Assembly: GCF_016785945.1 (NCBI RefSeq) | Contig: NZ_JAEMEF010000017.1 | Coordinates: 1-64,000, forward strand | Reading direction: 5' to 3' | Length of the DNA: 64,000 bases | From: Olleya sediminilitoris | GTDB taxonomy: Bacteria > Bacteroidota > Bacteroidia > Flavobacteriales > Flavobacteriaceae | Shown: piece by piece, positions 51,633 through 58,542 of the stretch | Layout: each line of letters opens with the position of its first letter | Numbering within the stretch: position 1 is the first letter of the stretch | Program-made: the position numbers and the translations under genes | Notes under the pieces: generated by a model | What the model was told of the DNA's origin: nothing | Seen by the model: the letters and a program-made list of their open reading frames with translations, nothing else | Databases searched by the model: none

Positions 51633-54600
51633 ATGAAAAAAAACCTACAAATGTTTAAAAGACTAATGTATCTACCTTTGTTTTTAATGCTATTCTCTCT
51701 AAGTTCAGTAGCTCAATCTCCTGTAGAAAAACATGGTCGATTACAAGTTAACGGAAATCGTATTCTTAATCAGTATGGAGAAATTACAAGCTTAGCTGGC
51801 AATAGCCTCTTTTGGAGTAATGCTGGAGACACCTCCGATTTTTATAATGCAGAAACTGTTGATTTTTTAGCAGAAAACTGGAATAGCTCACTTATTAGAA
51901 TAGCAATGGGTGTAAAAGAAAATTGGGATGGCGGAAATGGCTATATTGATAGTCCACAGGAGCAAGAAACTAAAATTAGAAAAGTTATTGACGCAGCTAT
52001 CGCTAATGGCATATATGTTATAATAGACTGGCACACTCACGAAGCAGAATTATACACAGATGAGGCTATAGACTTTTTTACCAGAATGGCAGATCTTTAC
52101 GGAGATACTCCAAATGTAATGTATGAAATTTATAACGAGCCTATATACCAAAGTTGGCCTGTTATTAAAAATTATGCAGAGCAAGTAATTGCTGGTATAC
52201 GTTCTAAAGATCCAGATAATTTAATAATTGTAGGTACTAGCAATTATTCTCAGCAAGTTGATGTAGCATCAGCAGACCCAATATCTGATAATAATGTAGC
52301 ATATACATTACATTTTTATGCAGCATTTAACCCTCATGATAACTTAAGAAATGTAGCACAGACTGCATTAGATAATAATGTTGCTTTATTTGTTACAGAA
52401 TGGGGTACAATTTTAAATACCGGACAAGGTGAACCTGACCAAGAAAGTACTAATACATGGATGGCCTTTTTAAAAGAAAGAGGTATAAGTCACGCTAATT
52501 GGTCTTTGAGTGACAAAGCGTTTCCTGAAACAGGGTCTGTAGTTCAAGCAGGACAAGGTGTACCTGGTTTAATTAACAATCAACTTACAACATCTGGTGA
52601 TATTGTAAAAAATATCATCCAAAACTGGGATACAGAGACCGCTTCAGAACCAACAACAACACAATGTAATACTATAGAATGTATTAGAGTTGCAATGCAA
52701 ACAGCACAAGCAGGAGATGAAATTATAATTGCCTCTGGAAACTACAATTTTCAAAACAAGATACAAGGTGCCTTTAACCGTAGTGCATACCTTTACGGTA
52801 ATGCTAATGGAAGCAGTACAAATCCTATTATATTAAGAGGAGAAAGCGCTACAAACCCTCCTGTTTTTTCAGGATTAGATTATAATAATGGCTATCTTTT
52901 AAGTATTGAAGGTGATTATTGGAACATTGAAGATATAGAGTTTAAAACAGGGTCTAAAGGTATTGTTCTTGACAATTCTAACGGTAGTAAATTAAAAAAC
53001 CTTGTTGTACATGATATTGGAGAAGAAGCTATTCACTTGCGTGATGGATCTAGCAATAATAGTATAGATGGTTGTACTATATATAATACAGGTAGAACTA
53101 AACCTGGTTTTGGCGAAGGTTTATATGTAGGCTCAGATAAAGGACAACATGACACTTATGAAAGAGCTTGTAATGATAATACTATTGAAAACTGTACAGT
53201 TGGACCTAATGTAACAGCAGAAGGCGTAGATGTTAAGGAAGGTACAATGAACACTATTATAAGAAATTGCGTGTTTTCTGCAGAAGGAATTTCAGGAGTA
53301 AATAGCTCAGATGCTTTTATTGATTTAAAAGGAGCCTATGGTTTTGTATACAGAAACACGTTTAACGTTGATGGTTCTGAAGTTATAAATACTGGAGTAG
53401 ACTTTTTAGATAGAGGTACAGGATTTAATACAGGTTTTAGAAATGCAATATTTGAAAACACATATAACCTTGGCAGTAGAGCTTCAGAAATTTCAACTGC
53501 TCGCAAAAAACAAGGTTCTCCTGAACAAACTCACGTTTGGGATAATATTAGAAACCCTAATTCTGTTGATTTTCCAATAAGTGATGGTACAGAAAATCTA
53601 GTAAATCAATTTTGCCCAGATTGGAATATAGAACCATGTAATCCTATTGATGAAACCAATCAAGCACCTACAATAAGCTTCCTATCTCCTATTAACAATA
53701 TTACTTTAGTTGAAGGTTATAATTTACAAGTTGAAGTTAATGCTACTGATGCAGATGGAACTATTGATAATGTAAAACTATTTATAGATAACAATTTAGT
53801 TAGACAAATAAATTCTACTTCATATAAATGGGGCCATTCTGAATCTCCAAACACAGATGAACTTAATGGTCTTACAGAAGGTACTTATGCCTTTAAAGCT
53901 ATTGCAACTGATAATGAAGGGCTGTCTGCAGAAACGGAATTTGTATTAACTGTAATAGCAGTACAAAACCCATCTGAAACTTGTAATTTTAATACACCTT
54001 CTCAAAATGGTTTAGAAGATTTTGACAATAAAAAGTTTTCTAATGTTTTTGTGTTAGGATCTGGTGGACCCTCTTTAAGTAATTTGAAAACATTTACTAT
54101 TAATTGGAATTCGCAATACAATGGACTCTATCAATTTTCAATAAACACAAATAATGGTGTTCCTGATTATTATATAAATTTAAAACCAAAAATTACCTTT
54201 CAGTTTAAAAATGAAAATCCCGAAATGTCTATTAGTAATAGCTTAATTCCTAATTTTGATGGAGATTACTGGGTAACATCAGATAATGGTAACTTTGTTA
54301 TGGTATCAAAATCTAATAATTTTACATTATATTTTAGTAACGACTCTTCTACTCCTACTTGTAATGTTATAAGTAGCAACCAACGTAGTCAAACAATTAA
54401 AATTAATAATGATTCTGGTACTAATTTTAAGCTTTTTCCTAATCCTGCTTCAAACGAAACTATTTTTGTTAGTTCTAAAAATGAAAGACTAGTATCTGTT
54501 GAAGTTTATGATTTACAAGGAAAATTATTAATTAGTCACAATGATGATAGTACGTTGCTAAAATTAAATATTTCTGAAATTTCATCAGGAACTTATGTTA

Positions 54601-54653
54601 TAAAAATTACAGGCACAACATCTAAAAAACGTTCTTTATTTGTAAAAAAATAG
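51633..54653 (+). CDS. Secreted GH5 cellulase fused to a beta-helix domain, T9SS-sorted
   Basis: A 1006-residue multidomain enzyme. Signal peptide about 1-28 (ending SSVAQS). GH5 domain about 30-333: acid/base Glu169 in YEIYNEPIY, nucleophile Glu256 in FVTEWGT, plus DWHTHEAE and TLHFYA, which suggest endo-beta-1,4-glucanase (GH5_2-like). Residues about 345-665 form a right-handed beta-helix (repeated patterns such as NIEDIEFKTGSKGIVLDNS and DNTIENCTVG), similar to Pel-type polysaccharide lyases. An Ig-like domain (675-780) and an unassigned beta domain (785-915) follow. The last 80 residues (FKLFPNPASNE, then GTYVIKI) are a T9SS type A sorting domain. Cellulose cleavage is likely; the helix domain's substrate is unknown. 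Confidence 0.88.
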   Translation: MKKNLQMFKRLMYLPLFLMLFSLSSVAQSPVEKHGRLQVNGNRILNQYGEITSLAGNSLFWSNAGDTSDFYNAETVDFLAENWNSSLIRIAMGVKENWDGGNGYIDSPQEQETKIRKVIDAAIANGIYVIIDWHTHEAELYTDEAIDFFTRMADLYGDTPNVMYEIYNEPIYQSWPVIKNYAEQVIAGIRSKDPDNLIIVGTSNYSQQVDVASADPISDNNVAYTLHFYAAFNPHDNLRNVAQTALDNNVALFVTEWGTILNTGQGEPDQESTNTWMAFLKERGISHANWSLSDKAFPETGSVVQAGQGVPGLINNQLTTSGDIVKNIIQNWDTETASEPTTTQCNTIECIRVAMQTAQAGDEIIIASGNYNFQNKIQGAFNRSAYLYGNANGSSTNPIILRGESATNPPVFSGLDYNNGYLLSIEGDYWNIEDIEFKTGSKGIVLDNSNGSKLKNLVVHDIGEEAIHLRDGSSNNSIDGCTIYNTGRTKPGFGEGLYVGSDKGQHDTYERACNDNTIENCTVGPNVTAEGVDVKEGTMNTIIRNCVFSAEGISGVNSSDAFIDLKGAYGFVYRNTFNVDGSEVINTGVDFLDRGTGFNTGFRNAIFENTYNLGSRASEISTARKKQGSPEQTHVWDNIRNPNSVDFPISDGTENLVNQFCPDWNIEPCNPIDETNQAPTISFLSPINNITLVEGYNLQVEVNATDADGTIDNVKLFIDNNLVRQINSTSYKWGHSESPNTDELNGLTEGTYAFKAIATDNEGLSAETEFVLTVIAVQNPSETCNFNTPSQNGLEDFDNKKFSNVFVLGSGGPSLSNLKTFTINWNSQYNGLYQFSINTNNGVPDYYINLKPKITFQFKNENPEMSISNSLIPNFDGDYWVTSDNGNFVMVSKSNNFTLYFSNDSSTPTCNVISSNQRSQTIKINNDSGTNFKLFPNPASNETIFVSSKNERLVSVEVYDLQGKLLISHNDDSTLLKLNISEISSGTYVIKITGTTSKKRSLFVKK

Positions 54654-54867: not shown

Positions 54868-54910
54868 TTAAAAAATAGGTAAGAAATAAAATGTATTCCT
54901 TACCTATTTT
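54868..54910 (-). terminator. Terminator of the Cys-rich protein gene
   Basis: Perfect 12-bp arms (54872-54883 and 54899-54910, AAAATAGGTAAG and its complement) just past the stop at 54918. The T-run is partly inside the stem. Confidence 0.65.
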
Positions 54911-54917
54911 ATTAATC

Positions 54918-55274
54918 TTAACATTTACCAAATGATTGACTTATAACTGTAATACCTGCGATTACGATAGAAATTTTAACTCCAGTTGGGATTCCCCAAG
55001 TTGTACAAATACTAATACAAGCCTGTCCGACAGAACCGCTTGGTATACTGACCGGAAGGGTAAAACAATGTTTACCAAAACCTAAAGGTAAATTGATACA
55101 AACACTATGTCCTTCTGTTGTTATTTTAATACACTCTGCACTAACCAACATACAACCACCACGACTTGTATCAAAACTAGAGTTTTTAGCATCTAAGACA
55201 CTACCTTCATATGTTTTTTTTGCTGCATCTACTGCATTTGCTATTGCTTCATCATTAAACGAATAAGTTGCCAT
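54918..55274 (-). CDS. Small cysteine-rich protein of unknown family
   Basis: A 118-residue protein starting MATYSFNDEAIANAVDAAKK with seven Cys spread over residues 41-118 (contexts GGC, AEC, SVC, KHC, QAC, SIC and the C-terminal GKC). The N-terminal 35 residues are helical; the rest is a Gly/Ser/Thr/Ile-rich beta sequence (TGVKISIVIAGITVISQSFG). There is no signal peptide, although the Cys content suggests disulfides or metal binding. No family recognised. Its upstream region is a duplicate of the one before the AidA/PixA-like pair at 55707-56608, implying shared regulation. It has its own terminator. Confidence 0.72.
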   Translation of the reverse strand: MATYSFNDEAIANAVDAAKKTYEGSVLDAKNSSFDTSRGGCMLVSAECIKITTEGHSVCINLPLGFGKHCFTLPVSIPSGSVGQACISICTTWGIPTGVKISIVIAGITVISQSFGKC

Positions 55275-55631
55275 AATATTATTTTTTTTAACTATAATCC
55301 TACTCTATTTATTTTAGGTTTTTCGGAATCCTCCTTAGTAAACAAAAATTGATAGTAGCTACTTATTCAAATATTTTTTTGTGATTACATTACAAATGTC
55401 TAATATTTTTTAAAACTTAAAAAGAGTGTAAATACCTGATTTTAAGCAACAAGTATTTATACGTACAAACAACTATTTAAAGTTTAGAATCTAATAGTAA
55501 AACAAGTATTGATCATAATATAGATTGAAATCTAATTATAACATACATACATTTTGGATAAACTATATTCTAAAAACTAAGTTTTCACAAAAAACTATGT
55601 GTACAATTAGTATTGATTAAAACTAATAAGA
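55275..55631. other. Promoter region A, a duplicate of promoter region B
   Basis: Bases 55275-55434 align collinearly with 56609-56763. Four blocks are shared on the minus strand: AATAGAGTA (55301-55309), AGTAGCTACT (55354-55363), ATTTGTAATGTAAT (55384-55397) and TATTTACACTCT (55423-55434). Bases 55435-55631 show nothing I can name. Confidence 0.75.
55354..55363. promoter_or_regulatory. Palindromic AGTAGCTACT element, copy A
   Basis: A perfect 10-bp palindrome 80 bases upstream of the Cys-rich gene start. Nine of its ten bases recur at the equivalent position in promoter region B. Candidate operator. Confidence 0.55.
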
Positions 55632-55686
55632 CAAAACAAAAATATGCTGTATTCAGAATATCAAGTAAAATCCTGAATACAACATA
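55632..55686 (-). terminator. Terminator of the AidA/PixA-like gene pair
   Basis: Arms 55643-55656 and 55673-55686 pair over 14 bp with one G-U, loop of 16; a T-rich tract (TTTTGTTTTGT) follows on the minus strand. Confidence 0.78.
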
Positions 55687-55706
55687 TAATTTAATACATA
55701 AAATAC

Positions 55707-56177
55707 TTATGAAGTACAGTTAAAAAACGGATCCCACCAGAAATATTTCATTGGAGCTCCTCCAACGGATACACCAATTTTTAATTGATAGGTACATTTA
55801 CCCTGTACCATAGCAGTTCCAATCCATTGATAAGAAGATATTGCATCTTGCTTTTGAGGGTATCCAAAATTTCCAAAAATATTGACACCTGATGATACTT
55901 CAAAACCTACGATTTCAACATTGTCACCTTGACTACCTGCAAGATCTATAGGAAAAGTATTAAAACCAATACCAAAACCTGCAGTTACATTTGAATTTAA
56001 TTCTAATCCACCTTGACCGGAACTCCCTCCAACTGCATTATTATCCATCATATAAATTCCTTTTCCTGCATATTGACCTGATGTTTGACTATATAAAAAC
56101 ACGGTATCTACAGCAACGTTTATGACTCTTGCAGGAATTACTGTTCCTGCAACAAAATTTGTACTATTATTTCTCAT
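55707..56177 (-). CDS. AidA/PixA-like inclusion-body family protein
   Basis: A 156-residue protein without a signal peptide. The pattern resembles the PixA/AidA family: a central GKGIYMMDNNAVGGSSGQGG and ELNSNVTAGFGIGFNTFPI block, and a terminal TYQLKIGVSVGG then YFWWDPFF, where family members usually have YxWDPFI. PixA forms cytoplasmic inclusion bodies in Xenorhabdus; AidA proteins are quorum-regulated in Burkholderia. The biochemical role is unknown. The gene begins 14 bases after the preceding gene of the pair and ends in a terminator. Confidence 0.72.
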   Translation of the reverse strand: MRNNSTNFVAGTVIPARVINVAVDTVFLYSQTSGQYAGKGIYMMDNNAVGGSSGQGGLELNSNVTAGFGIGFNTFPIDLAGSQGDNVEIVGFEVSSGVNIFGNFGYPQKQDAISSYQWIGTAMVQGKCTYQLKIGVSVGGAPMKYFWWDPFFNCTS

Positions 56178-56191
56178 AATATTTAGTTTTA

Positions 56192-56608
56192 TTATGCTTC
56201 AACTGGAGTGATTACCACTGGAAGCGTTACGGTTATAGATTCAGACCCACCATTGTAGCTAAACTGGATGTTAGAGTCTACAGTTCCTCCAACAGTACCT
56301 GTTTCAAGTTTACCAGTAAACGTATTGGATAAACCTGGAACTGGAGCTGGAGGTGTTGCCCAACCTGATTTTGCTCCAACAGCAGTAATAGTAAAATCAC
56401 CATTAAATTGTGGATCTATAGGCACAACAGTCCAACACACATTACTACCACTAATAACGTTAGTTTTTAAATTTGCTGTTCCTTCACCTGTAGAATCTTG
56501 ACTTTTATTGCAAACAGCATAGCATCCAGAGGTTGAACCCTGTTTCATACTATTTACATCTGCCCATACTTGGACAAATACCGTACATTGATTTGGTTGT
56601 ATTGACAT
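56192..56608 (-). CDS. Small beta-rich protein, possible partner of the AidA/PixA-like protein
   Basis: A 138-residue protein starting MSIQPNQCTVFVQVWADVN with four Cys (residues 8, 28, 32 and 57 approximately). It is Gly/Ser/Thr/Val-rich, predicted all-beta, and ends in ESITVTLPVVITPVEA. No signal peptide. It is weakly reminiscent of the AidA/PixA fold (SGSNVCWTVVPIDPQFNGDF recalls the region before the second strand pair), but I would not assign it. First gene of a two-gene operon driven by promoter region B. Confidence 0.68.
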   Translation of the reverse strand: MSIQPNQCTVFVQVWADVNSMKQGSTSGCYAVCNKSQDSTGEGTANLKTNVISGSNVCWTVVPIDPQFNGDFTITAVGAKSGWATPPAPVPGLSNTFTGKLETGTVGGTVDSNIQFSYNGGSESITVTLPVVITPVEA

Positions 56609-56681
56609 CGATTAATTATTTAGTTTTCTTACTCTATTTAAAATTGGCTTTTCAGATTGCGCCATAATAATTAAAACGAAT

Positions 56682-56691
56682 TGTAGCTACT
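56682..56691. promoter_or_regulatory. GTAGCTACT element, copy B
   Basis: TGTAGCTACT, sharing nine of ten bases with copy A, 74 bases upstream of the pair's first start codon. The core GTAGCTAC is a perfect palindrome. Confidence 0.5.
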
Positions 56692-56952
56692 CAATCGATT
56701 ATTTCATTATTAATTACAACACAAATATCTGATGAAAACTAAGAAATCATTAGAGTATAAATAATGCTTTTCAAAAACAGGTATAAACACCTAAAACATT
56801 AAATATCAATAAATTAAATAAGTGTTTATCAAGAAAAACAAAATGCAAAAAAAAATAAAAAACTTGATTTATTATCTACTATTAAAAGGACACCATCTTT
56901 TTTAATAAGTATAAAAAGAATTATAATTATCATCTACAAGAAATTGAAATTG

Positions 56953-57861: not shown

Positions 57862-58542
57862 TTAAAGTGCTTTTTTTAGGTCTTCAATAGTTTTAGCCAT
57901 TACAACACCTGGTAATTTTACTGGAGCAGCAACTTCTGCTAAAAATGTTCCTTTTACTTCACCTGTTTTGTAAGTTGTAAAACCTACTCTGTATAAACCA
58001 GCAGTTAAAGCTTTTGTAGGGCTTCCTGTTTCGCTTTTATATCTTAAAAGTGAATTATAACTACTTCCACTTGGTTGCTTAGGCATTTCGCTACTGTCAT
58101 CATTACTTGTTAATGTTGTCCAAGTTGCACTTTTTACAGACTCTTCTGTAACATCTTCTTTCTTAAAAATTGTAGAACGCTCTAAAGTAATATAAGTATC
58201 AAAAAAATCTTCAGACGATGCGTTTTCTGTATATTCATCAGACTTAATAACATTTTTTACTTTGTTTTTTCCTACTGGAGAAACCATTCTTACACCTAAT
58301 TCTGGAGCAACAATTGGTACCCAAACATATATGTAATACATTTTTTTACCATCTTTTACTTCATCTTCGTTTCCCGGAGAAGCGTATCCTGCATAAGATA
58401 TTACATCTGTATAAGGTACTTTAATTGTTTTTGGTCCAATTTTCTTTTCTGTTGAACTTCCAAATTTTTTCAATTTCTGAGCTTCTGCACTAAACATTGC
58501 ACAAAAAGCTAATACTGATAATGCTACTAATTTAATTTTCAT
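57862..58542 (-). CDS. LipL32-like surface/periplasmic protein
   Basis: A 226-residue protein with a signal peptide cleaved around AEAQ (residues 19-22). Two long segments match the Leptospira surface antigen LipL32 as I know it: residues 69-91 (YVWVPIVAPELGVRMVSPVG within) and 182-200 (GLYRVGFTTYKTGEVKGTF). A middle segment FFDTYITLER and YNSLLRYK also correspond. The acidic Asp cluster of LipL32 is reduced to SNDDSSE. No lipobox is present, so unlike LipL32 it is not expected to be a lipoprotein. It is the second gene after the four-TM protein. Function in Bacteroidetes is unknown. Confidence 0.82.
   Translation of the reverse strand: MKIKLVALSVLAFCAMFSAEAQKLKKFGSSTEKKIGPKTIKVPYTDVISYAGYASPGNEDEVKDGKKMYYIYVWVPIVAPELGVRMVSPVGKNKVKNVIKSDEYTENASSEDFFDTYITLERSTIFKKEDVTEESVKSATWTTLTSNDDSSEMPKQPSGSSYNSLLRYKSETGSPTKALTAGLYRVGFTTYKTGEVKGTFLAEVAAPVKLPGVVMAKTIEDLKKAL

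What the first reader, a model, noticed from the sequence alone, without database searches (positions are those of the whole stretch)
54868..56764. Candidate undescribed system: three small Cys-containing proteins under duplicated promoters
An AidA/PixA-like protein and a partner (two-gene operon) and a seven-Cys protein lie in tandem on the minus strand, each unit with its own terminator. None has a signal peptide. Their upstream regions are homologous, so the unrelated proteins are probably expressed together. AidA/PixA proteins are elsewhere quorum-regulated or form inclusion bodies, which hints at an assembled or released structure.
Basis: partly seen in the sequence, partly recalled or inferred. 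Interest (0 to 1): 0.72.

Follow-up and report, generated by a model that had tools for sequence, protein, structure and literature searches.

The report
Pseudoknot-controlled cytosolic proteins, possibly anti-grazer
Two neighbouring transcription units of a flavobacterium, encoding three small proteins without export signals, start with the same conserved promoter-like region and RNA pseudoknot; elsewhere in the phylum the same leader precedes unrelated small soluble proteins including a lectin, which suggests a shared programme, perhaps of defence against grazing predators.

Summary
The three ORFs, both terminators and the homologous upstream regions are real. P1 (56192-56608) and P2 (55707-56177) are not unrelated: both match NCBIfam MakCD (1e-6, 9e-15; below its cut-off), accessory proteins of a Vibrio toxin, near the AidA/PixA group. 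P3 (54918-55274) is an orphan beta protein; its three known homologues have no P1/P2-like neighbours, so a fixed three-gene system is not supported. The upstream repeats are two copies of a 110-nt leader: promoter-like boxes, a GTAGCTAC palindrome and a DUF805b RNA (RF02914). Covariation over 101 sites supports an H-type pseudoknot; the window's two copies themselves differ by a compensatory change. They are the only two clear DUF805b RNAs in this genome. A model of the long leader scores at least 36 bits in 15 of 397 family genomes; there it precedes proteins without signal peptides in 18 of 19 judged cases (among them a mannan-binding lectin in a congener), whereas DUF805b at large precedes SP/TM-like proteins in 58 of 97. 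Best reading: one co-regulated set of cytosolic effector-like proteins, perhaps directed at eukaryotic grazers. Co-regulation is well supported by sequence; the function is inferred.

The parts
56192..56608 (-). P1, 138 aa, no signal peptide; distant MakC/MakD-like protein (AidA/PixA superfamily)
   Evidence: NCBIfam MakCD NF049870 E=1e-6 over residues 26-77 (28.8 bits, curated cut-off 110); phmmer to PDB 8rqy 'inclusion body protein' E=0.0057; BLASTP to P2 E=2e-4. AF2 model useless (pLDDT 45).
55707..56177 (-). P2, 156 aa, no signal peptide; MakC/MakD-like protein, second gene of the P1 operon
   Evidence: NF049870 E=9e-15, residues 19-145 of 156 (54.8 bits, cut-off 110); 14 nt after the P1 stop.
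54918..55274 (-). P3, 118 aa, 7 Cys (6 invariant in 4 sequences), no signal peptide; orphan family
   Evidence: No Pfam, NCBIfam or PADLOC match at E<=1 and only a chance-level PHROG hit, E=0.28. Homologues 53-62% identical. AF2 pLDDT 82.5: helix 8-29, linker 30-40, six strands from residue 41 on; no Foldseek PDB match at E<=0.001.
56625..56731 (-). Long leader of P1-P2 (box B, palindrome, DUF805b RNA)
   Evidence: Model R1, 83.0 bits (member of the model's training set).
55297..55403 (-). Long leader of P3
   Evidence: Model R1, 82.5 bits (member of the training set).
56626..56665 (-). DUF805b RNA (RF02914) of the P1-P2 leader; stem TGGC/GCCA, pseudoknot UCU/AGA; AGAGTA ends 21 nt before the ATG
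   Evidence: cmscan 33.6 bits, E=2.8e-7, gathering 35.6.
55297..55336 (-). DUF805b RNA of the P3 leader; stem AGGA/ACCT (3 of 4 pairs), pseudoknot UCC/GGA; AGAGTA ends 26 nt before the ATG
   Evidence: cmscan 32.9 bits, E=4.8e-7.
56683..56690 (.). GTAGCTAC palindrome in the P1 leader
   Evidence: Sequence; conserved in the leader class.
55355..55362 (.). GTAGCTAC palindrome in the P3 leader (AGTAGCTACT)
   Evidence: Sequence.
56752..56757 (-). Box A (TACTCT), 22 nt upstream of box B
   Evidence: Read by eye from the upstream sequences; promoter role inferred.
56722..56729 (-). Box B (GATATTTG), like a Bacteroidota -7 element (recalled consensus TAnnTTTG)
   Evidence: promoter role inferred.
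55423..55428 (-). Box A of the P3 leader (CACTCT)
   Evidence: inferred.
55393..55400 (-). Box B of the P3 leader (GACATTTG)
   Evidence: inferred.
55642..55687 (-). Terminator hairpin after P2
   Evidence: I21, 18-nt arms, 89% complementary; -22.0 kcal/mol with U tract.
54872..54910 (-). Terminator hairpin after P3
   Evidence: I20, 17-nt arms, 94% complementary; -19.6 kcal/mol with U tract.

Best explanation
P1-P2 and P3 are two transcription units that together make up this genome's set of genes under one composite leader. The leader runs from promoter-like boxes (box A, 22 nt, box B) through a GTAGCTAC palindrome, often flanked by an inverted repeat, into a DUF805b RNA that folds as a small H-type pseudoknot ending 20-30 nt before the start codon. 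The leader is the conserved unit; the genes behind it differ from genome to genome. In this family, and in a Saprospiraceae MAG, it precedes unrelated small soluble proteins without signal peptides. Proposed working, partly inferred: a shared transcriptional signal and a pseudoknot-dependent step, probably control of translation or mRNA stability, switch on together a stock of cytosolic effector-like proteins. They act when the cell lyses or is eaten, by binding or disabling something in a eukaryotic grazer, as Mak, AidA and cytosolic fungal lectins do in their own systems. P1 and P2 would form a homo- or heterodimeric MakC/MakD-type beta-sandwich pair; P3 is a separate effector with its own beta domain. 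Shown by sequence: the leaders, covariation, gene content and absence of signal peptides. Inferred: transcription start, the regulatory step, localisation and the anti-grazer role.
For: DUF805b match in both leaders and above gathering before the three P3 homologues. Only two clear copies in the genome; the next hit (21.8 bits) has no ATG ORF above 7 aa within 120 nt. Pseudoknot pairs form in 93, 101 and 101 of 101 unique sites, with ten fully complementary triples; none of seven slid pairings exceeds its own shuffles. On the 12-leader alignment 0 of 500 shuffles reach the observed share of paired cells or the covariation score. Model R1 reaches 36 bits or more at 21 places in 15 of 397 family genomes. 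Of these 19 have a judged gene: 18 of 19 lack a signal-peptide-like stretch, and 10 of 10 outside the training set; DUF805b leaders at large precede SP/TM-like proteins in 58 of 97. Contents: MVL lectin E=2.1e-14 in a congener, DUF2589 6.1e-31, vWA 2.7e-6, cystatin-like 8e-4, below its cut-off. Mak toxins are needed to kill Tetrahymena (abstract of PMC12872930); aidA is needed for virulence in C. elegans and shares a two-gene operon with another PixA protein (passages of PMC9060813).
Against: No expression data. Of 31 signal-less proteins scanned only 3 pass a Pfam cut-off, so 'effector' rests on few cases. MakC and MakD are cytosolic accessory proteins without toxicity of their own (PMC11484084), and no MakABE-like gene was recognised beside P1/P2. 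The window's RNAs score just under Rfam's gathering cut-off. DUF805b also precedes many exported and GG-leader proteins, so the RNA itself does not mark cytosolic effectors. Single-strand folding of the 100-nt leaders beats shuffles clearly in at most 2 of 10. The 10 non-training genes are not independent: L221 and L224 are one gene in two species of a genus, and L220 gives two of the ten.
Confidence: 0.45

Rival explanations
1. P1 and P2 work as in Vibrio: accessory or chaperone-like proteins for a pore-forming toxin encoded elsewhere in the genome, with P3 merely co-regulated.
For: Both match MakCD; MakC forms large complexes and loss of makDC lowers MakB and MakE and impairs MakA secretion (PMC11484084).
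Against: No toxin-like gene recognised among the window's 50 listed ORFs of 90 aa or more (read by eye; only 7 ORFs scanned in Pfam); the operon holds only P1 and P2. The rest of the genome was not searched for alpha-pore-forming toxins.
Confidence: 0.15
2. They are storage or inclusion-body proteins of stationary phase, like PixA, under a growth-phase leader.
For: PixA proteins are inclusion-body proteins that rise towards stationary phase (passages of PMC9060813); the DALI neighbour 4lzk of MakC/D (PMC11484084) is a PixA protein (PMC9060813).
Against: Pfam PixA does not match at E<=1. The same leader precedes a lectin, a vWA protein and a cystatin-like frame, not storage proteins.
Confidence: 0.15
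3. P3 is a double-glycine leader peptide (RiPP or bacteriocin precursor) exported by a peptidase-containing ABC transporter.
For: Helix plus low-confidence linker ending SRGG before a Cys-rich core; 17 of 97 genes behind DUF805b were classed as GG peptides by a crude rule.
Against: The GG is absent in the L008 homologue (HGN); the predicted core is a folded domain of about 78 aa; no transporter or modifying enzyme recognised by eye in the listed ORFs nearby.
Confidence: 0.08
4. The conserved leader is only a widespread strong promoter/5' UTR and the genes under it share no function.
For: DUF805b precedes very diverse genes.
Against: The long leader, unlike DUF805b at large, stands almost only before soluble proteins without signal peptides and is rare (15 of 397 genomes at 36 bits or more).
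Confidence: 0.17

Closest known systems
MakC/MakD of Vibrio cholerae (NCBIfam NF049870)
   Same: Two adjacent paralogous small proteins without signal peptide; profile match over most of P2 and part of P1.
   Different: Scores far under the curated cut-off; no MakABE-like genes recognised beside them; a different phylum; under a DUF805b leader.
AidA/PixA (Pfam PF12306), with the bnr1-aidA operon of Burkholderia cenocepacia
   Same: Two-gene operon of related small beta proteins (PMC9060813); 4lzk, a DALI neighbour of MakC/D (PMC11484084), is a PixA protein.
   Different: No PF12306 match at E<=1; 138-156 aa against 173-191 aa for PixA (PMC9060813).
DUF805b RNA (Rfam RF02914)
   Same: Stem, A-rich loop and AGAGUAGG tail, upstream of genes.
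   Different: Window copies score 2.0-2.7 bits below gathering; here part of a longer conserved leader. The structure line printed by cmscan shows no pseudoknot; whether its discoverers drew one I could not read.
Cytosolic defence proteins of mushrooms (intracellular nematicidal lectins)
   Same: Works-like comparison only: defence proteins held inside the cell (passages of PMC6126850; start of the abstract of PMC10512399 in the listing). That they lack signal peptides and include protease inhibitors is recalled (a cited title names inhibitors).
   Different: No homology claimed; no anti-grazer activity shown here.

Membership tests
MakCD (NF049870) | Score over the curated cut-off (110 bits) | tested here: not met
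   P2 54.8 bits, P1 28.8 bits: homologous, not a member at NCBI's threshold.
MakCD (NF049870) | Adjacent paralogous pair | tested here: met
   P1 and P2, 14 nt apart, mutual BLASTP E=2e-4.
MakCD (NF049870) | Operon with makB/A/E toxin genes | tested here: not met
   Terminator after P2; neighbouring ORFs are P3, a GH5 enzyme, a membrane protein and a LipL32-family protein.
MakCD (NF049870) | Beta-sandwich fold and dimer | tested here: inconclusive
   AF2 of P1 with P2 as alignment: pLDDT 45. P2 was not folded on its own.
PixA (PF12306) | Pfam profile match | tested here: not met
   None at E<=1 for P1, P2, P3. The genome search is uninformative because no control rang.
PixA (PF12306) | Forms inclusion bodies | not testable with these tools
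   Needs microscopy.
DUF805b RNA (RF02914) | Covariance-model score over gathering (35.6 bits) | tested here: not met
   33.6 and 32.9 in the window; 36.1, 42.0 and 43.1 before P3 homologues. Called near-members because those orthologous leaders pass.
DUF805b RNA (RF02914) | Stem and conserved tail | tested here: met
   P1 4 of 4 stem pairs, P3 3 of 4; AGAGTA tail in both.
Double-glycine leader peptides (for P3) | Conserved GG cleavage motif | tested here: not met
   GG in 3 of 4 homologues; L008 has GN.

The most novel reading that the evidence does not exclude
A conserved 'expression cassette' (promoter, inverted repeat and DUF805b pseudoknot) serves Bacteroidota as a plug-in leader for a fast-exchanged arsenal of cytosolic anti-eukaryote proteins (lectins, protease inhibitors, MakC/D-like pairs, orphan folds such as P3): a bacterial counterpart of the mushroom's intracellular defence proteins, with the pseudoknot as the point where ingestion, stress or density is sensed.
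Probability: 0.25. Interest if true: 0.85.

Novelty: new variant of a known kind. Interest (0 to 1): 0.6.

Why it matters
DUF805b is a common but, as far as I could read, unexplained leader (over gathering in 68 of 149 family genomes, one per genus). The window shows a rare long form that is tied to one sort of gene product, so it gives the RNA a tractable regulon. It also gives a way to find unannotated effector-like proteins by their leader rather than by homology, since most of those scanned match no family. It places MakC/D-like proteins outside Vibrio in a genome with no recognised neighbouring Mak toxin genes, which bears on what MakC/D do: the MakC/D authors noted that no accessory proteins are known for other tripartite toxins and spoke of the exclusive presence of these proteins in V. 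cholerae (PMC11484084, Discussion).

Tried and rejected
Upstream micropeptide: the leaders of P1, P3 and L008 can be read as a short ORF (xSEKPxxNRV; for the window pair, L008 by eye). Rejected, because the L007 and L009 leaders are out of frame by 1-2 nt (by eye, sequences) while the RNA match holds.

P3 as a phage gene: no relative in viral contigs. P2 in plasmids: none.

The GTAGCTAC pattern search over 397 genomes matched 218 genomes, and its backwards control also matched widely; among the listed matches I recognised only a handful of leaders by eye, so it was replaced by model R1.

Thresholds: the 103 of 149 genomes with DUF805b at E<=0.01 is a loose count, since 2 of 14 control genomes rang too; 68 of 149 are over gathering. 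At E<=1 all 14 controls rang, so the weak hits in the own genome are probably chance. R1 at E<=1e-4 hits 45 of 397 genomes, but many of those are partial matches to the DUF805b half; I count 15 of 397 at 36 bits or more, a threshold I set after seeing the genes. In the phylum sample 6 of 247 genomes match at E<=1e-5; the three outside the family score 34.6, 34.0 and 31.8 bits, so spread of the long form beyond the family rests mainly on L008.

Thermodynamic folding of the 100-nt leader: 10 sequences, z-scores from -2.15 to +0.97, not convincing. The flanking inverted repeat is kept as tentative: arms pair better with their own partner than with those of other genomes (20 leaders; 0 of 5000 permutations reach the observed sum), but single cases are weak (W_P1: 15 of 38 swaps as good). 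In one search the number of further pair types does not exceed shuffles (290 of 500 reach it), and 12 of 500 reach the number of pairs changed on both sides.

Fold of P3: no Foldseek PDB match at E<=0.001; best second-look Z 4.2, so no known fold can be named. Literature: no paper of the held library has 'DUF805 RNA', 'DUF805b' or 'DUF805 motif'; none of the papers listed (10 of 18; 10 of 1,761) holds the word DUF805. So I cannot say whether the pseudoknot is in print.

Rows dropped: the gene survey used 110 of the best-scoring places. 17 of these 110 loci lacked the text pattern, and 14 of 110 (96 plus 16 added sites = 112, 101 unique). The site score rewards stem pairs, CC and AGAGTAGG, so its stem counts and the two inner pseudoknot pairs are biased upward; the outer pair (93 of 101; shuffled mean 44) was not scored. 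Two of its slid controls are mostly paired (89 and 98 of 101) because those bases hardly vary, but no better than their shuffles. The 97 ORFs include at least three pattern mis-hits and 20 members of one family; its hydropathy and GG rules are crude. In one search the one 'SP-like' case at >=36 bits (L165) is by eye the first strand of a repeat. Two of 21 high-scoring R1 places (G122, G699) were left out of the 19 because their cystatin-like frame lacks a clean start; of the lower R1 hits only ten were fetched and nine judged (L228 gave no row).
Full report
What is there. The minus strand between 54868 and 56764 holds two transcription units. Unit 1 is P1 (138 aa) followed after 14 nt by P2 (156 aa) and a strong terminator hairpin; unit 2 is P3 (118 aa, 7 Cys) with its own terminator. 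The window's G+C is 29.7%; P1, P2 and P3 have 39%, 35% and 35%. No protein has a signal peptide by a simple hydropathy rule.

What the proteins are. NCBIfam's MakCD model (accessory proteins of the Vibrio MakABE toxin) matches P2 at 9e-15 over 127 residues and P1 at 1e-6 over 52 residues, both below the curated cut-off of 110 bits. P1 also touches the solved structure 8rqy, 'inclusion body protein', at E=0.0057, and P1 and P2 match each other at 2e-4. They are therefore diverged paralogues of one superfamily. It borders on PixA by structure: MakC/D have 4lzk as a DALI neighbour (PMC11484084; abstract, first part of Results and Discussion read), and 4lzk is a PixA protein (passages of PMC9060813). 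Pfam PixA does not match. P3 matches no family beyond chance level. Its AF2 model (pLDDT 82.5 from 4 sequences) has an N-terminal helix, a low-confidence linker and six strands after it, with no clear structural relative.

Do they travel together? P3 was found in 2 of 149 family genomes (own included), in 1 of 10 of its genus (own only) and at 3 loci of genome contigs (Flavobacteriaceae MAG L007, Saprospiraceae MAG L008, Bizionia echini L009). The second genome carries the same P3 homologue and neighbours as L009, so it is probably B. echini, and the family is then Flavobacteriaceae; both are inferences. P1 and P2 were each found only in the own genome of 149, and the MakCD profile only in the own genome of 345 (its 14 control genomes did not ring). 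A tblastn of P1 and P2 against 226 held loci gave nothing, while P3 hit its four known homologous loci. So there is no evidence of a conserved three-gene system.

What is shared is the leader. Both upstream regions contain an Rfam DUF805b RNA (33.6 and 32.9 bits; gathering 35.6), and so do the leaders of the three P3 homologues, above gathering. In this genome these two are the only clear copies; the next hit has 21.8 bits and no ATG ORF above 7 aa within 120 nt, and weaker ones were not looked at. DUF805b is otherwise common: 103 of 149 family genomes at E<=0.01, where 2 of 14 controls also ring, and 68 of 149 over gathering.

The RNA is a pseudoknot. In 101 unique sites the loop triple xYY pairs with the tail triple RRx in 93, 101 and 101 cases. 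Ten complementary triples occur (GCC/GGC 35, ACC/GGT 17, TCC/GGA 13, TCT/AGA 5, CCC/GGG 4, GCT/AGC 3, ACT/AGT 3, TTC/GAA 2, GTC/GAC 1, CCT/AGG 1), and no slid pairing exceeds its shuffles (selection bias told under Tried and rejected). On the alignment of 12 long leaders 95.2% of cells pair (shuffled 83.1), 10 cells changed on both sides (shuffled 2.7), and no slide from -3 to +3 pairs more than 54.9%. The window's two leaders themselves differ by a compensatory change (UCC/GGA in P3, UCU/AGA in P1). The tail ends a median of 24 nt before the ATG (92 of 94 cases within 18-31 nt), and 26 and 21 nt for P3 and P1. That position fits control of translation or of the mRNA's 5' end. In 18 of the 97 surveyed cases a sigma-54-like promoter lies just upstream, which would place the RNA near the transcript start.

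A longer leader defines a subclass. Upstream of the RNA the window copies share further blocks with leaders from other genera: box A (like TATTTATACTCT), about 22 nt, box B (GAnATTTG), a GTAATC...GATTAC-type inverted repeat and the palindrome AGTAGCTACT (blocks read by eye; the resemblance of box B to the Bacteroidota -7 element is recalled). A sequence-only model of 12 leaders (R1) reaches 36 bits or more at 21 places in 15 of 397 family genomes: 10 training members and 11 new ones. At E<=1e-4 there are 45 of 397 genomes, many with only the DUF805b half. In 247 phylum genomes 6 match at E<=1e-5, three outside the family with 31.8-34.6 bits.

What stands behind it. Of the 21, 19 have a gene that could be judged; 18 of 19 lack a signal-peptide-like stretch, including 10 of 10 that were not in the training set (not all independent: L221 and L224 are one gene in two species of a genus, and L220 gives two). 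Of 9 lower-scoring genes judged, 5 have one, and of 97 ORFs behind DUF805b at large 58 do, with 17 more classed as GG peptides. The genes are mostly unrelated to one another. I scanned 31 proteins or pieces without signal peptide that stand behind the long leader or behind DUF805b (10, 10, 8, 3; some are second genes). Three pass a Pfam cut-off: an MVL mannan-binding lectin in a genome of the same genus (2.1e-14), DUF2589 (6.1e-31) and a vWA protein (27.5 bits against 27). Two are suggestive but below their cut-offs: DUF6426 (6e-5) and cystatin (8e-4).

How it most likely works. Shown: common leader, pseudoknot, lack of export signals, rarity and variety of the genes. Inferred: the leader makes P1-P2 and P3 rise together under one signal, and the proteins stay in the cytosol until lysis or ingestion. 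A lectin, a possible protease inhibitor and a Mak/AidA-type pair under one control recall defence against eukaryotic grazers. Mak toxins are needed to kill Tetrahymena (abstract of PMC12872930), aidA is needed for virulence in C. elegans (passages of PMC9060813), and fungi keep nematicidal lectins inside their cells (passages of PMC6126850). Against it: MakC and MakD themselves are not toxic and are linked to toxin expression and secretion, and no activity is known for any protein here. I put about 0.85 on co-regulation through the leader, about 0.35 on the anti-grazer role, and 0.45 on the statement as a whole.

Novelty. MakC/D-like proteins and DUF805b RNA are known kinds. New here, as far as the held library allows, are the link between them, the long-leader subclass and its gene content.

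Noticed in passing
57862-58542 (-): Protein with a very strong match to LipL32 (PF12103, 2.2e-82), the surface lipoprotein family named after spirochaetes, here in a flavobacterium.
   Followed up: no
51633-54653 (+): GH5 cellulase domain joined to a beta-helix region, a Big_7 domain and a Por secretion tail.
   Followed up: no
L013, L022, L024, L027, L029, L031, L055, L056 and others: 18 of the 97 ORFs have a sigma-54-like promoter (TGGCAC-N5-TTG) directly before the DUF805b RNA; by eye nearly all belong to one family of secreted proteins (a cluster of 20).
   Followed up: partly
L018, L019, L023, L032, L040, L058, L061, L173, L178: Many double-glycine leader peptides (RiPP or bacteriocin-like precursors) stand behind DUF805b RNA; L178 has a LanC-like gene downstream (recalled resemblance, not tested).
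   Followed up: partly
L163 and L219: Two long leaders are followed by a cystatin/stefin-like frame (QVVAG/QVVHG) without a clean in-frame start after the leader, and then by a second gene alike in both; frameshift, unusual start or decay. Only the L163 frame matches Pfam Cystatin (8e-4).
   Followed up: partly
L213 and L232: MVL-type lectins behind the leader: in a congener of the window's genome (L213, PF12151 tested) and, by resemblance only and behind a weak leader (24.8 bits), in L232, where a second soluble protein follows.
   Followed up: partly
L235: Protein without signal peptide behind a leader in another genome (G326) with a Gly-rich SFWGFGAAGV motif that recalls the VapA-type beta barrel; not tested.
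   Followed up: no
L216, L221, L224, L233: DUF2589-type proteins recur behind the leader in several genera (PF11655 tested for L216 only; the others by resemblance).
   Followed up: partly
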